Shown one piece after another: positions 308 to 35,694 of a stretch of 37,007 nt of DNA (position 1 is the stretch's first letter; every line of letters begins with the position of its first letter). Under the pieces are notes generated by a model. It had not been told where the DNA came from and did not search any database. It was given only the letters and a program-made list of their open reading frames with translations. The stretch is from a virus: the IMG/VR virus record IMGVR_UViG_3300024182_000016, positions 1 through 37,007 of that record. One strand, 5' to 3'. A program made the position numbers and the translations under genes.

Positions 308-501
308 AAATCACCCTCATTATCAATTTCCATTATATGTTGCTTAATGCATTCTATTGCATACAAAATATGTGATACATGTATTTCATCTATGTTATTA
401 TATTCAATGTCAAACGTGAAACCGTTTCTGCTAAAAGTTATAATTACTTGCGCTGGTTCCTCGATAGCATTTTCTGGAACAATGCTTAAGTGACTCTTCA
501 C
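304..501 (-). CDS. Hypothetical early protein, 65 aa
   Basis: GTG start at 499-501 preceded by AAGGAAG, the usual distance away. Both ends overlap neighbours by GTGA (with the zinc-knuckle gene upstream and the winged-helix-like gene downstream), so it lies in a tightly coupled string. The protein is acidic and mixed alpha/beta (IITFSRNGFTFDIEYNN, then an amphipathic helix HILYAIECIKQHI). No signal peptide, membrane segment or known motif is visible, and no function can be assigned. Confidence 0.7.
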   Translation of the reverse strand: MKSHLSIVPENAIEEPAQVIITFSRNGFTFDIEYNNIDEIHVSHILYAIECIKQHIMEIDNEGDL

Positions 502-635
502 GGTTCTTCCTTATTGTAAATTTCTTTAATTTGCATTCGTAATGTTTCAATCGCCAGCACAATGTTGTTGTGATAGTCAGAATGTTTGTTGATGTCTTCA
601 ACGAGTGCACCGCACGTTTGGCAAATAACGCTCAT
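498..635 (-). CDS. Zinc-knuckle microprotein (C-x2-C...H-x4-H), 45 aa
   Basis: ATG at 633-635 with GGAAGAA upstream; the stop overlaps the GTG of the next gene as GTGA, and its start overlaps the previous stop as ATGA. The N-terminal half carries C5-x2-C8, then H17-x4-H22 (CQTCG...KHSDYH), a C2H2-type metal site often seen in phage microproteins. The C-terminal half is one charged helix. It is a relative of the 31-residue protein at 1343-1438, which has the same Cys/His layout. Binding to nucleic acid or protein is inferred, not shown. Confidence 0.75.
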   Translation of the reverse strand: MSVICQTCGALVEDINKHSDYHNNIVLAIETLRMQIKEIYNKEEP

Positions 636-778
636 TTTTCTTCCAACACATGTTTAAGTATTGTTATATTAAATTTAATCAAAAACTTTGACGTAACCAT
701 AACTGGTTTATTCTCCGTTTCTTCATACTGCTTTTCTGCTAACGCTATTTGTTCTCTGATCCATTCTTCAGTTTTCAT
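632..778 (-). CDS. Hypothetical early microprotein, 48 aa
   Basis: ATG at 776-778 lies 11 bases inside the end of the Cys-triplet gene. The stop overlaps the next start as ATGA. There is no strong Shine-Dalgarno, so re-initiation after the upstream stop is likely. The protein has a Glu/Lys-rich helical start (MKTEEWIREQIALAEKQY) followed by a hydrophobic helix (KFLIKFNITILKHVLEE). No recognised family. Support is the overlap pattern and the lack of any other gene between its neighbours. Confidence 0.65.
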   Translation of the reverse strand: MKTEEWIREQIALAEKQYEETENKPVMVTSKFLIKFNITILKHVLEEK

Positions 779-1358
779 ATTGCTGATTGTTGTTTTTCAA
801 GATAACTGGAATAGGCGGAGTAACAAAATCCTTTTTGATGTTTTGTTTGTCAGAGCAGCGATAGCAGTCAAAGCAGTAAGAGCAGCCAAAGCAGCTAGAG
901 CAGCGATAGCAGTCAGAGCAGCGATAGCAGCCAGAGCAGTCAGAGCAGTCAGAGCAGCCAGAGCAGTCAAAGCAGTAAGAGCAGCGATAGCAGTCAGAGC
1001 AGCGATAGCAGTCAGAGCAGTCAGAGCAGTCAGAGCAGCCAGAGCAGTCAGAGCAGCGATAGCAGCCAAAGCAGCCAGAGCAGTCAGAACAGTCAGAGCA
1101 GCCAGAGCAGTCAAAGCAGTAAGAGCAGCCAGAGCAGCGATAGCAGCCAGAGCAGTAAGAGCAGTCAGAACAGTCAGAGCAGCGATAGCAGTCAGAGCAG
1201 TCAGAGCAGTAAGAGCAGTTAATACAATTTTTACAATTCTTTAAACTATCGATTGCCGCAATAGTTTTTTCTTCTGAACCAAAATATAAAATTGAGCATT
1301 TGTTATTATTAGAATCAATAAACCATTTAACGCCATTACTGTCTATTTCAATTTGCAT
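768..1358 (-). CDS. Cys-triplet repeat protein: 43 consecutive x-x-Cys units
   Basis: A 196-residue protein. Residues 1-40 are an ordinary N-terminal segment (MQIEIDSNGVKWFIDSNNN...). Residues 40-168 are 43 uninterrupted x-x-C triplets, so Cys sits at 42, 45, ... 168. The two residues between Cys come from a tiny set (SD, YR, SG, SY, FD, FG, with KN/IN at the start). A polar 28-residue tail follows. The start is set by GGAAAAAGC before ATG 1356-1358. There is no signal peptide, so it should be cytosolic and reduced. A regular solenoid with a Cys ladder, or a metal-loaded protein, is possible; no function is assigned. It is cotranscribed with CsrA and zinc microproteins. The start and stop overlaps with neighbours mark this frame as the coding one, although two other frames also stay open through the repeat. 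Confidence 0.8.
   Translation of the reverse strand: MQIEIDSNGVKWFIDSNNNKCSILYFGSEEKTIAAIDSLKNCKNCINCSYCSDCSDCYRCSDCSDCSYCSGCYRCSGCSYCFDCSGCSDCSDCSGCFGCYRCSDCSGCSDCSDCSDCYRCSDCYRCSYCFDCSGCSDCSDCSGCYRCSDCYRCSSCFGCSYCFDCYRCSDKQNIKKDFVTPPIPVILKNNNQQYEN
855..1241. repeat. 9-bp tandem repeat array (43 units) inside the Cys-triplet gene
   Basis: On the + strand the array is built of 9-mers of the form gca+gtcaga, gcgata, gtaaga, gccaga or gtcaaa. Each encodes one Cys triplet on the minus strand. Units differ at only two or three positions, and longer blocks (for example the run SYC-FDC-SGC-SDC-SDC-SGC) occur twice. This indicates growth by slippage or unequal exchange. Because the unit is 9 bases, gain or loss of units keeps the frame open. 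Copy number in an assembly may be collapsed. Confidence 0.9.
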
Positions 1359-1438
1359 GCTTTTTCCAAGTCGTGAAATTCACGATGTTTTTTAATGTCA
1401 TCACCAATACATCCATATTTTATGCAACTAAATTCCAT
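1343..1438 (-). CDS. Zinc-knuckle microprotein, 31 aa
   Basis: ATG at 1436-1438 lies 10 bases inside the end of the upstream gene and is preceded by a strong AAGGAGAACGCTC ribosome site. The stop (1343-1345) overlaps the first codons of the Cys-triplet gene. The protein has C5 and C10, then H18-x3-H22 (KKHREFH), matching the layout of the 45-residue protein at 498-635 with one wider Cys spacing. The pair look like diverged copies of a small metal-binding fold. Role unknown. Confidence 0.65.
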   Translation of the reverse strand: MEFSCIKYGCIGDDIKKHREFHDLEKACKLK

Positions 1439-1796
1439 GAGCGTTCTCCTTCCCTTCATATGAAAATATAACAATATTTTTGTCGATCATACAATCAAAA
1501 TCCCGTCGCGCATTCATAGGGATACCTATTTTTTGTGTCAAACGGCGCACTTCAACATGCGCGTTCTTATGACTTTTCAGTTTTGGTATTGTTATTTTTC
1601 GTGCATTATCTTCTGGTGTGTTAGTAAATCTAAGAGCCACTTTTTTTTCTTCTGTATTAAATAAGATGACAACATATTTGTTATCACATATTTTCATTGA
1701 TTTAACAAAATTTTCATGAAAATACAAAACTGTACGACTGATCCGTAAAGGTGTTTTTTGTTTCTGCAATGGTCGTTCAAGTATTTCCCAGGTCAT
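1428..1796 (-). CDS. Hypothetical protein, 122 aa, immediately after csrA
   Basis: ATG at 1794-1796, five bases after the csrA stop; the ribosome site (AGAGAG) is part of the last csrA codons, so the two genes are probably coupled. The protein is basic and beta-rich (YVVILFNTEEKKVALRF), with no signal peptide or membrane segment. I do not recognise the family. Its position directly after csrA makes a shared regulatory role possible but unproven. Confidence 0.7.
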   Translation of the reverse strand: MTWEILERPLQKQKTPLRISRTVLYFHENFVKSMKICDNKYVVILFNTEEKKVALRFTNTPEDNARKITIPKLKSHKNAHVEVRRLTQKIGIPMNARRDFDCMIDKNIVIFSYEGKENAHGI

Positions 1797-1801
1797 ATTT
1801 G

Positions 1802-2008
1802 TTACTCTCTAAAAACACCATAAGGGATGTAATTTCCTTTTTCCTTTTCGGACTTTATTTTTAAGTAAATCTCTTCCCGATGAATACTAATATCTTTTGG
1901 CGCATTAATTCCGATTCGCACTTGATGTCCTTTGATGCCAAGGACAGTAACAGTTATATCGTCTTTGATGATTAGTGTTTCACCGATGCGACGTGTAAGT
2001 ATCAACAT
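1802..2008 (-). CDS. csrA: CsrA/RsmA-family RNA-binding translational regulator
   Basis: 68 residues, close to the usual 60-70. The protein begins [14 protein letters not shown] and contains [19 protein letters not shown] and SIHREEIY, so the RNA-contacting residues known from the family are present (L4, R6, R7 in the first strand; H43-R44-E45 in the last). CsrA dimers bind GGA in hairpin loops of mRNA leaders and block or stabilise translation. The start is set by GGGGAGAAATTTAC before ATG 2006-2008, and the gene overlaps the upstream stop by 7 bases. A phage copy could compete with or redirect the host Csr system, or act on phage mRNAs. The repeated GGA at gene junctions 34.0-36.9 kb is a candidate target set. 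It resembles gammaproteobacterial CsrA more than the shorter Gram-positive forms. Confidence 0.97.
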
Positions 2009-2379
2009 GTAAATTTCTCCCCTGATTCGAGTTTAGTAGTTATTTCATTAACAACTTTTTCATGTATGTCATTTGCTTTTAAATCCGAGTCATGTTCGCA
2101 TTCATTAAGCTCACAATCAGAATCAAAGCTTATTTGTTTTGTTACATCTGCTTCCCAATATGGTTTTTCATAAATAGCTTTAAATGCCATTGTTTCAAAA
2201 TAACTATCGCATCCTATTTGCTCAGCAGTTTCTTGTCCACGGGGATACCATTTACCTATCGTAGAAACTACTATTTTCTTTTTCCCATATTCCAATAAAG
2301 TATTTCTTTTAAAACGACATTGGTTCGCAACACATAAATGTGCCGCCCATCCTCTTTCTGTTCGTTTAACTTTTTTCAT
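2002..2379 (-). CDS. Conserved phage hypothetical protein, 125 aa
   Basis: I prefer the Met at 2377-2379 ([14 protein letters not shown]) to the ATG-ATG ten codons earlier, which lies inside the preceding gene and has no ribosome site. The core (ERGWAAH...[37 protein letters not shown]) is the pattern of a hypothetical phage family I have seen near recombination genes; its biochemical role is not known to me. The tail is acidic. It overlaps csrA by 7 bases. Confidence 0.75.
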
Positions 2380-2389
2380 TTTGTTATGC

Positions 2390-2866
2390 TCAGAAAGGGA
2401 TGTCATCATCGAATGGTAATTTAGTAGTATTTTTTTCTATTTTTCCATCCGATTTTTGATAATCTTTAACTGTATTTCTATCACTATATCGTTCACTAGA
2501 ATTTGGTTTTTGTTGTCCTTTTTGAATAACAAGTTCCACACTACCACATTTCCCTATACAGCTTTTCGGATCAAATTGACCACTATTATATTCATTTTCA
2601 AATCCAATGGATTCACAAAAATGTTTAATTTTATAAATACTCATTGGAGAAGAAACGAGATAATCATAAATAGAATGTTCTCTACCTTTTGAATCCCATA
2701 CTTTTAACTGTAGTTTAATCATTTTATTACCACTTGCTTTTGATTTAAGTGGATTTCCTTCAGAATCTTTGTTCTCAACATCAACCACTTCAAATGGGTA
2801 AGTGCCTGGATTAAGCAGTGCCATTTCTTGAATTTCTTGTTCTGTCATTGCTGTAAAACTAAACAT
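2390..2866 (-). CDS. Single-stranded DNA-binding-like protein (DUF669-type)
   Basis: 158 residues. It has a beta-rich N-terminal domain (GTYPFEVVDVENKDS..., KMIKLQLKVWDSKGREHSIYDYLV), a flexible charged linker and an acidic tip ending DDDIPF. This is the hallmark of phage SSB proteins, whose tail recruits partners. The gene follows the Sak4-type ATPase with a one-base stop/start overlap (TAATG), an arrangement typical of phage recombination and repair modules. It would coat ssDNA during replication and annealing. The exact family assignment is inferred. Confidence 0.75.
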   Translation of the reverse strand: MFSFTAMTEQEIQEMALLNPGTYPFEVVDVENKDSEGNPLKSKASGNKMIKLQLKVWDSKGREHSIYDYLVSSPMSIYKIKHFCESIGFENEYNSGQFDPKSCIGKCGSVELVIQKGQQKPNSSERYSDRNTVKDYQKSDGKIEKNTTKLPFDDDIPF

Positions 2867-3714
2867 TATTGATCTCCTTTGATTTTATATTGAAGGGCAT
2901 CGATACATTTTTGGATTGAATCTGCATTCATTTCTTCAAATGTTTCGGCATTCGTTTTATCGAGCCATTTATTGATTGTTTCTTCTGGCACTTTTAATAA
3001 TTCAATTAATCGTTTGAGTTCTTTAACTTGTTCAGCAGATGCTAGTTTTTCTGTTACTGCATCACGCTCTAGAACGGAACGACCATATTTTTCAGCAATT
3101 GCATCATAATTAAATGGAAATTGGTCTCCATCTGGAAAAGATTCTATACGTGATTTTTTAACAATACCTACGCGTTCCTTGCCGCGTTTTTGAATCTCAA
3201 AAACCAAATCGAATAAATAATCAAGCTTTTTATAGCAATCAAACGTTTGACCTATTATCTTCATGCCATCGCCATACTCATTTTTAGCATGTGATGTAAT
3301 AATTACATTCATATCTAAACGTGTTAAAAGTTTTAATAAATGACGCATCTTTTTATTAGCTTCGCTATAATGACGACCAAATTCATTACCGACTTTTAAT
3401 TCTGCTTTGTCCAATAAATCATTATAAAGAGTGGTCAATGGATCAACTACTAATGTTTTATATTCATGTTTTTCAGTGAGCAGTGATTTTATTTCTTGTA
3501 TAAGTTCATCAAAATCAGATGTTTGAAAAATAACACCACCACATGTTTCTAGTTGTTTAACATATTGGTCATTTGTAGCACCTTTTTCCGTATCAATAAG
3601 ATAAGGTTTCGGAAAACTAATGCTCGCAGTTGTTTTGCCAACACCTGCCGCGCCATAAAAGAACGCTTTTAATCTTTTTTCTACTGTACTTGGTTTTACT
3701 CCACGTAATGCCAT
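2866..3714 (-). CDS. Sak4-type RecA-fold ATPase (phage recombinase / annealing protein)
   Basis: 282 residues. Walker A is G21AAGVGKTT29. A Walker B-like strand YKTLVVD91 is followed by P-L-T-T-L, and a later strand ends in ITSH (residues 139-142), the sensor position seen in AAA_24 proteins. The N-terminal segment VEKRLKAFFYGAAG is typical. Sak4 proteins use ATP to promote ssDNA annealing with a partner SSB, encoded next door. It acts on DNA in the cytoplasm in phage recombination. The start is set by ACAGGAGATTAATC before ATG 3712-3714. The C-terminal 70 residues form a small helical domain (LASAEQVKELKRLIELLKV...), often seen in this family. Confidence 0.88.
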   Translation of the reverse strand: MALRGVKPSTVEKRLKAFFYGAAGVGKTTASISFPKPYLIDTEKGATNDQYVKQLETCGGVIFQTSDFDELIQEIKSLLTEKHEYKTLVVDPLTTLYNDLLDKAELKVGNEFGRHYSEANKKMRHLLKLLTRLDMNVIITSHAKNEYGDGMKIIGQTFDCYKKLDYLFDLVFEIQKRGKERVGIVKKSRIESFPDGDQFPFNYDAIAEKYGRSVLERDAVTEKLASAEQVKELKRLIELLKVPEETINKWLDKTNAETFEEMNADSIQKCIDALQYKIKGDQ

Positions 3715-5082: not shown

Positions 5083-5343
5083 TTATTTTGATAGCTTAGA
5101 AATAAAGCGAGCAGAAGAGATATTAAGTGCTTTAGCAATAATAAATAATCTATCAAGAGGGACGCGATAACGCCCCACTTCATAACATGAAATAATGCGT
5201 TGTCCATCATCGTATTTTTTAATACATTGTTTTTTTTTCTCAGTATATTTTTTCACTTTATTCCATCCGCATAAAGCTGCTAATTCAGATTGGGAAAGTC
5301 CTTTTTTCAACCGTTCTTTTTTTATTAATTCGCCTATACGCAT
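5083..5343 (-). CDS. Cro/CI-like XRE-family HTH regulator with a lengthened HTH
   Basis: 86 residues. The HTH starts IGELIKKERLKKGLSQSELAALCG (residues 3-26) and ends ISCYEVGRYRVPLDRLFIIAKAL (residues 51-73), the normal frame of the lambda-repressor-like fold. Between the second helix and the recognition helix lies a Lys-rich stretch (about residues 29-47) that most family members lack. It sits between divergent promoters and is probably the switch regulator of this phage; there is no dimerisation/cleavage domain. Inverted repeats with AGTAT/ATACT arms at 5371-5385 and 10911-10937 are candidate operators. Start codon at 5341-5343 with AAAGGCGAATT upstream. Confidence 0.85.
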   Translation of the reverse strand: MRIGELIKKERLKKGLSQSELAALCGWNKVKKYTEKKKQCIKKYDDGQRIISCYEVGRYRVPLDRLFIIAKALNISSARFISKLSK

Positions 5344-34983: not shown

Positions 34984-35694
34984 TTAGTCTTTAGTTTCCA
35001 GATAAACATGCTTCTCTATATAACTTCTATCTTGAGAAAAAACAGGTATTTCTTCATCCATTTCCCATTTTCCTTCTTTATAAATCACGCAAGCCCCGCG
35101 TTTTTGATAAGTAGGAATATCATTCCAGTTAATACCTTTATCAAGCATTAACAAATCATGAAGCTGGGAAGTTTTAAGTCCATGTAATTGTTTTTGCGAA
35201 AAATGTTGTTGTGCCAAACTCTGAAGACTATTTCTTTCTGCGTCACGTTGTCGCCATAGAAAGTAATTACAAACCTCATCCGGTGGAAGAATAACAACAC
35301 GACTATCAAAATGTGCCAATTTAACAACGCCTCTTGCAAACATTTCACGATTAAATATTGCTGTTGCCATACTTGCTGATACAGATGTGATTTTTTGAAT
35401 ATTTTTATCAAACCAAGCTTGGCTATTAAGCTGATTGTAATCCGTAAGTAACAAGCTGATTTCATCAGATTGCCAATAAGCTAATTTACAACCCATGATT
35501 TCTTTACAGAGATAAATACAAGTTTCTTGCATGGCAGAAATCAATCTTGCGTCAAACGGTTTTTCAAATTTGGCGGTGTAAGTGTGAAACGCGCAGCCAT
35601 CCAGACGAATGATTAAAGGCATACGAATAGGCAGACAAATTCTAAACGCATTCTCATATTTCTTCATTCTGTCGCCAAAATTTGATTTTTCCAT
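34984..35694 (-). CDS. Thg1-like protein (TLP): 3'-5' tRNA polymerase
   Basis: 236 residues. F6GDRMKKYE, R30LDGCAFH with metal-binding D32, Q75SDEISLLL with D77-E78, FDSRVVILPPDEVCNYFLWRQ (129-149) and DAERNS follow the Thg1/TLP catalytic core. The eukaryotic HINNLYNT motif is replaced by DAERNSLQSLAQ, typical of bacterial and phage TLPs. Such enzymes add nucleotides to RNA 5' ends in the 3'-5' direction, repairing 5'-truncated tRNAs or adding G-1 to tRNA-His. Both metal ligands are present, so activity is expected. No tRNA gene is seen in the window, so the substrate should be host tRNA, perhaps ones damaged by defence nucleases (inference). Stop codon lies in the junction repeat. Confidence 0.93.
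   Translation of the reverse strand: MEKSNFGDRMKKYENAFRICLPIRMPLIIRLDGCAFHTYTAKFEKPFDARLISAMQETCIYLCKEIMGCKLAYWQSDEISLLLTDYNQLNSQAWFDKNIQKITSVSASMATAIFNREMFARGVVKLAHFDSRVVILPPDEVCNYFLWRQRDAERNSLQSLAQQHFSQKQLHGLKTSQLHDLLMLDKGINWNDIPTYQKRGACVIYKEGKWEMDEEIPVFSQDRSYIEKHVYLETKD

What the first reader, a model, noticed from the sequence alone, without database searches (positions are those of the whole stretch)
768..1358. Protein built from 43 consecutive x-x-Cys triplets
Seen directly: residues 40-168 have Cys at every third position without a break, with only about nine dipeptides between. This is far outside known zinc knuckles (which space their CxxC pairs) and is encoded by a 9-bp repeat that can expand or shrink in frame. 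Inference: a solenoid with a ladder of Cys, a metal-storage or redox protein, or a scaffold for phage-made clusters. It lies in an early operon with CsrA and two C2H2 microproteins, so metal-linked regulation is possible. It may define an undescribed phage protein class.
Basis: partly seen in the sequence, partly recalled or inferred. Interest (0 to 1): 0.78.

Follow-up and report, generated by a model that had tools for sequence, protein, structure and literature searches.

The report
Phage cysteine-every-third-residue solenoid repeat protein
A phage early gene encodes a protein with a cysteine at every third residue for 43 repeats; it belongs to a large, widespread family of unknown function whose cysteine array occupies the place taken by known coiled-rod (beta-solenoid) repeats in sister proteins, so it is most likely a new cysteine-cored rod rather than a metal store.

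Summary
It is no chance or artefact. IMG/VR holds at least 145 distinct complete relatives with 10-62 units; copies also occur in an isolate genome (Kaistia) and a cultured phage (FL-1). The Cys frame is under strong protein-level selection: in 175 arrays, 14 of 5,274 core positions are non-Cys, against 185 silent Cys-codon changes and thousands of changes at the other two residues. The C-terminal domains that follow these arrays in relatives also follow pentapeptide, YdcK-type and LRR-type repeats and a Cys/Leu-alternating array. AlphaFold2 confidently models the N-cap and about the first 8 triplets with one bridge residue per triplet; the rest is low-confidence. Best reading: a Cys-cored beta-solenoid rod, exchangeable with other solenoids, in a phage recombination/early operon. 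Metal or redox function is unsupported but not excluded, because Cys is almost invariant. The window copy keeps N-cap and array but has no C-terminal domain. The cellular target is unknown. Known only as PHROG phrog_15341, unknown function; no Pfam or NCBIfam model.

The parts
768..1358 (-). Cys-triplet array protein, 196 aa (ATG at 1358)
   Evidence: phrog_15341 E 4.2e-25; Shine-Dalgarno-like GGA about 7 nt before ATG
1242..1358 (-). N-terminal cap, residues 1-39 (GVKWFIDSNNNKCSILYFGSEEKTIAAIDSL), shared with many relatives
   Evidence: alignments A2/A3; AF2 pLDDT 96-97
855..1241 (-). array of 43 x-x-Cys triplets, residues 40-168
768..854 (-). C-terminal tail, residues 169-196 and stop; remnant of the linker (TPPIPVI, cf. 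PPIPKIENIH in kin), no C-terminal domain follows
   Evidence: no match to the C-domain profile anywhere in the record
1363..1367 (-). Shine-Dalgarno-like GGAAA upstream of the ATG
1802..2008 (-). CsrA-like regulator in the same operon (context)
   Evidence: phrog_9500 E 5.3e-30
2390..2866 (-). SSB-like protein (context)
   Evidence: phrog_378 E 5.6e-7, phrog_2698 E 2.3e-14
2866..3714 (-). Sak4-like ssDNA annealing protein, 1.5 kb upstream on the same strand (context)
   Evidence: phrog_124 E 1e-26
498..635 (-). C2H2-like microprotein (context)
1343..1438 (-). C2H2-like microprotein overlapping the start of the array gene (context)

Best explanation
The protein is a small cytoplasmic beta-solenoid rod. 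The N-terminal cap nucleates the first coil. Each C-x-x triplet forms one side of the coil with the Cys side chain pointing inward, so that the core is a ladder of small thiols and x1, x2 (S/Y/F + D/G/R/Y) face the solvent; the register is like that of Tenebrio antifreeze protein, where every third residue is C, S, C, A. Rod length is set by slippage of the 9-bp repeat. In most relatives the rod is followed by one of a few C-terminal domains, which probably do the targeting; in those proteins the Cys rod is exchangeable with pentapeptide, YdcK-type or LRR-type solenoids, so it serves as a rigid spacer or multivalent binding surface. It is made from the early recombination operon, so the likeliest role is binding a host or phage DNA-metabolism or defence factor. 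Shown: sequence, family, selection on Cys, module exchange, operon context. Inferred: fold beyond the first ~8 triplets, thiol state, target, function.
For: Same C-domains on different solenoids: domain a (WHTCxTTHCRAGW, phrog_31265) on 75 Cys arrays among the best 80 loci, on 47 pentapeptide and 28 Cys arrays with the Bordetella query, and on an LRR-like array in L337; domain b (CGCFxGT) on 34 Cys, 23 YdcK-type and 10 pentapeptide arrays. Pfam confirms the swapped arrays: PF00805 E 4.5e-57 and PF18836 B_solenoid_ydck E 1.5e-41. Variant arrays L313/L311 alternate Cys and Leu at the same triplet position, with the Cys-array type of N-cap and domain b. Selection: 14 non-Cys vs 185 silent changes in 5,274 core positions. 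AF2: N-cap and first triplets pLDDT 83-97 with one bridge residue every third residue, seen in two separate models. The only PDB sequence match of the array is 1EZG, a 12-residue-coil beta-helix whose C..S..C..A register aligns with C..C..C..C (PMC6834126). Context: an SSAP gene within 3 kb in 12-13 of 16 records that have one, expected 2.6-2.8.
Against: AF2 confidence falls below 50 after about 8 triplets, and Foldseek finds no PDB fold match. The 1EZG match is dominated by composition (bias 34.8 bits against a score of 22.4). No clear coil periodicity: lag-4 enrichment z 3.9 but nothing at lags 8, 12, 16, and unit numbers are not constrained modulo 2-6. Near-perfect Cys invariance is stronger than a plain hydrophobic core needs. 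The window protein lacks the C-terminal domain on which the exchange argument rests.
Confidence: 0.62

Rival explanations
1. A metal-storage, Fe-S or redox protein: the Cys ladder binds Zn, Cu or Fe-S clusters, or acts as a thiol buffer during infection.
For: 22% Cys, CxxC spacing throughout, 99.7% Cys at 5,274 core positions; C2H2-like neighbours in the window.
Against: The same C-terminal domains work with Cys-free pentapeptide, YdcK-type and LRR-type arrays and with Cys/Leu-alternating arrays. No interruption into discrete CxxC sites. Across relatives the recurrent neighbours are recombination genes.
Confidence: 0.18
2. A disulfide-bonded rod, as in Tenebrio antifreeze protein, active outside the reducing cytoplasm.
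For: Register match with the disulfide-rich 1EZG; near-invariant Cys.
Against: The N-cap shows no signal peptide and the gene lies with cytoplasmic DNA-metabolism genes; exchange with Cys-free arrays.
Confidence: 0.07
3. A DNA-level repeat (recombination, packaging or regulatory element) with an incidental reading frame, or a disordered low-complexity chain.
For: Tandem 9-bp repeats near recombination genes; several other frames open in the window; AF2 low confidence over most of the array.
Against: The Cys frame is open in all scored arrays while the others are broken in 18-69 of 175; silent changes far exceed replacements at Cys; Ser is encoded by TCN and AGY codons; conserved folded N-cap and C-domains on both sides.
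Confidence: 0.08
4. Assembly artefact or miscounted repeat.
For: Metagenome-derived record; arrays of this kind are hard to assemble.
Against: Dozens of different unit orders in independent metagenomes, an isolate genome (Kaistia, L082) and a cultured phage (Flavobacterium phage FL-1, L092).
Confidence: 0.03

Closest known systems
PHROG phrog_15341 (unknown function)
   Same: N-cap and Cys array match (E 4.2e-25); this is the existing computational family for these arrays
   Different: no function, structure or description attached
Pentapeptide repeat proteins (Pfam PF00805)
   Same: precede the same C-terminal domains in sister phage proteins; both short-period, in-frame expandable arrays
   Different: period 3 with Cys instead of period 5 with A(N/D)LXX; no Pfam match in the window protein
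YdcK beta-solenoid repeat (Pfam PF18836) phage proteins, e.g. phiRM10 gp34
   Same: precede the same C-terminal domain b
   Different: hexapeptide GDARVS-type repeat, no Cys core, other N-cap
Tenebrio molitor antifreeze protein (PDB 1EZG)
   Same: every third residue is C/S/C/A in register with the Cys array; right-handed beta-helix with 12/13-residue coils (PMC6834126)
   Different: eukaryotic, secreted, disulfide-bonded, TxT ice face; similarity is compositional and not evidence of descent
Zinc knuckles and metallothioneins
   Same: high Cys content, CxxC spacing
   Different: no spacing between CxxC pairs, no His ligands, uninterrupted run of up to 62 units

Membership tests
PHROG phrog_15341 | profile match over N-cap plus array | tested here: met
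   E 4.2e-25, residues 12-153
Pentapeptide repeat (PF00805) | profile match, A(N/D)LXX period of 5 | tested here: not met
   no Pfam family at E up to 1; period 3
YdcK solenoid (PF18836) / hexapeptide repeats | profile match, six-residue period | tested here: not met
   no Pfam family at E up to 1
Beta-solenoid (works like) | exchangeable with known solenoid modules in front of conserved domains | tested here: met
   met for relatives with C-domains; the window copy itself lacks the C-domain
Beta-solenoid (works like) | stacked coils in the three-dimensional structure | tested here: inconclusive
   AF2 confident only over N-cap and about 8 triplets; no PDB fold match
Tenebrio-type antifreeze protein | homology and TxT ice-binding face | tested here: not met
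   match is composition-driven (bias larger than score); no TxT ladder in the array
Metal-binding or redox Cys protein | bound metal, Fe-S cluster or disulfides | not testable with these tools
   needs purified protein
DNA-mimic anti-restriction protein (Ocr-like) | strongly acidic surface | tested here: not met
   arrays carry only -4 to -11 net charge per 100 aa; window array -8 over 127 aa

The most novel reading that the evidence does not exclude
A previously undescribed protein fold class: a triplet-register solenoid whose continuous interior thiol ladder (up to 62 Cys in line) is functional, for example lining up metal ions or passing disulfides along the rod, and which phages use in place of ordinary solenoids where the host chemistry favours it.
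Probability: 0.2. Interest if true: 0.88.

Novelty: new variant of a known kind. Interest (0 to 1): 0.68.

Why it matters
It would be the smallest solenoid repeat unit known to me (3 residues) with one amino acid filling the core, in hundreds of uncharacterised phages. The exchange of several unrelated solenoid chemistries in front of the same C-terminal domains gives a direct handle on an unknown phage early-protein class: what the shared domains bind, and why a rod of variable length is needed. It is also a ready-made scaffold for protein design.

Tried and rejected
DNA near-identity and tblastn of the window protein in annotated phages gave nothing. Pfam and NCBIfam gave nothing above cut-off for the Cys-array proteins scanned. 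Hits of the window N-cap to Pizza beta-propellers are summed weak repeats, each with E about 30, and ubiquitin hits to a relative are chance; both rejected. Genome hits L083 and L085-L090 are low-complexity chance matches. Coil periodicity from sequence autocorrelation and from unit number modulo 2-6 was sought and not found convincingly. Neighbour clustering found no universally conserved partner gene. Foldseek against PDB found nothing; against BFVD it found only the C-terminal domain of a relative as a small protein of Campylobacter phage CP20 and one unnamed entry. Paper searches found no description of such arrays in the held library. The idea that CsrA or C2H2 neighbours point to metal regulation was not pursued: neither appears among the recurrent neighbour families.

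Full report
What is there. The ORF at 768-1358(-) encodes 196 aa: an N-terminal cap of 39 residues, 43 uninterrupted x-x-Cys triplets (residues 40-168) and a 28-residue tail. The record is a 37,007-base virus contig with tailed-phage genes on the plus strand: terminase, portal, head, head-closure and tail-fibre proteins. The array gene lies in a minus-strand early operon with a Sak4-like annealing protein, an SSB-like protein, a CsrA-like regulator and two C2H2-like microproteins.

It is a real, large family. A scan of IMG/VR with the window protein returned 102 relatives; after further scans 145 distinct complete array proteins were collected, with 10-62 units and medians near 28. Relatives come from contigs with 30-63% GC, a Kaistia isolate and a Bosea genome and the cultured Flavobacterium phage FL-1. 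PHROG phrog_15341 already groups them, without a function. Pfam and NCBIfam have no model for them. I found no paper describing such arrays in the held library.

The protein, not the DNA, is selected. In 175 arrays with 5,274 core positions only 14 are not Cys, while 185 carry the minority synonymous Cys codon for their array. The two other positions vary freely (1,113 and 2,798 minority residues). Each of the other five frames is broken in 18-69 arrays. Ser at x1 is encoded by TCN and by AGY codons. Unit number changes while caps stay identical or nearly so: 42 against 37, 28 against 25, 22 against 32.

Modular exchange. Relatives carry one of several C-terminal domains. Domain a (WHTCxTTHCRAGW..., phrog_31265) follows Cys arrays in 75 of the best 80 loci (two of the rest are frame-slipped arrays, three are cut by the contig end). 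A search with the domain of a Bordetella plasmid protein that PGAP calls pentapeptide repeat-containing found 47 pentapeptide and 28 Cys arrays. Domain b (CGCFxGTLxEF) follows 34 Cys arrays, 23 YdcK-type hexapeptide arrays and 10 pentapeptide arrays. These counts come from capped, query-biased hit lists and show the range of arrays, not their true proportions. Pfam confirms the swapped arrays as PF00805 and PF18836. L337 carries domain a after LRR-type repeats, and L313 and L311 carry arrays in which Cys and Leu alternate at the core position. Known solenoids thus take the place of the Cys array in front of the same domains. This is the main argument that the Cys array works like a solenoid. 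It is an argument from relatives: the window copy retains the N-cap and a linker remnant but no C-domain, and none is found elsewhere in its record. L005 and L055 are similarly capless.

Structure. AlphaFold2 with 35 sequences gives pLDDT 83-97 for the N-cap and first triplets of the window protein, with a single bridge residue every three residues; confidence falls below 50 from residue 67. A separate run on L046 shows the same start. No solved fold matches. The only sequence match of the array in the PDB is Tenebrio antifreeze protein, E 5.6e-4 with heavy composition bias; its C..S..C..A pattern falls in register with C..C..C..C. That protein is a right-handed beta-helix with 12/13-residue repeats (PMC6834126); that its every-third residues point inward is my own knowledge. 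I take it as a geometric precedent, not as homology. Coil periodicity could not be read from the sequences.

Context and function. In 16 related records with a recognised RecT, ERF or AAA_24 (Sak4-type) gene, it lies within 3 kb of the array in 12 (13 if circular), expected 2.6-2.8; in the window the distance is 1.5 kb. Most of the 50 records searched had no hit to these three profiles, so the statement holds only for those that did. One further record with a very weak AAA_24 match (G028) was left out. Pentapeptide and YdcK-type sister proteins also sit beside recombination genes in a Bordetella plasmid and in phage phiRM10. Arrays are only weakly acidic, like the pentapeptide and YdcK-type arrays with the same domains, so strong DNA mimicry is not indicated. 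The most likely role is a rigid or multivalent rod used in early takeover of host DNA metabolism or defence; the target is unknown.

What stays open. Why is Cys almost invariant? Tight packing of small thiols is enough in principle, but a metal or redox role of the ladder is not excluded. Hence the separate novel case.

Noticed in passing
window 34984-35694 (-): Phage-encoded tRNA-His guanylyltransferase (Thg1-like), phrog_4717 E 5e-93.
   Followed up: no
L337 (bacterial genome fragment): The HTCxTTHCRAGW domain is attached to leucine-rich-type repeats (RGDLDLRGTAITALPEGLSV), a fourth solenoid type in front of the same domain.
   Followed up: partly
L313:2608-3210, L311:2641-3189: Arrays alternating Cys and Leu every third residue (C..L..C..L) between the Cys-array type of N-cap and the CGCF domain.
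   Followed up: partly
L092:7497-8313 (Flavobacterium phage FL-1): Array gene whose frame shifts inside the C-terminal domain; the deposited annotation lists off-frame ORFs over the array and the domain as separate hypothetical proteins.
   Followed up: partly
L076, L108, L123: Arrays slipped out of the Cys frame (runs of LLG, TAR or TAP instead), natural slippage alleles or sequencing errors.
   Followed up: no
L133, L273, and records G002 and G004: Some phages carry two array genes close together.
   Followed up: no
BFVD A0A410T6Z0 (Campylobacter phage CP20): The C-terminal domain of L046 resembles a free-standing 69-aa protein of unknown function.
   Followed up: no
window 2002-2409 (-), 1428-1796 (-): Two operon proteins without any PHROG match.
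   Followed up: no
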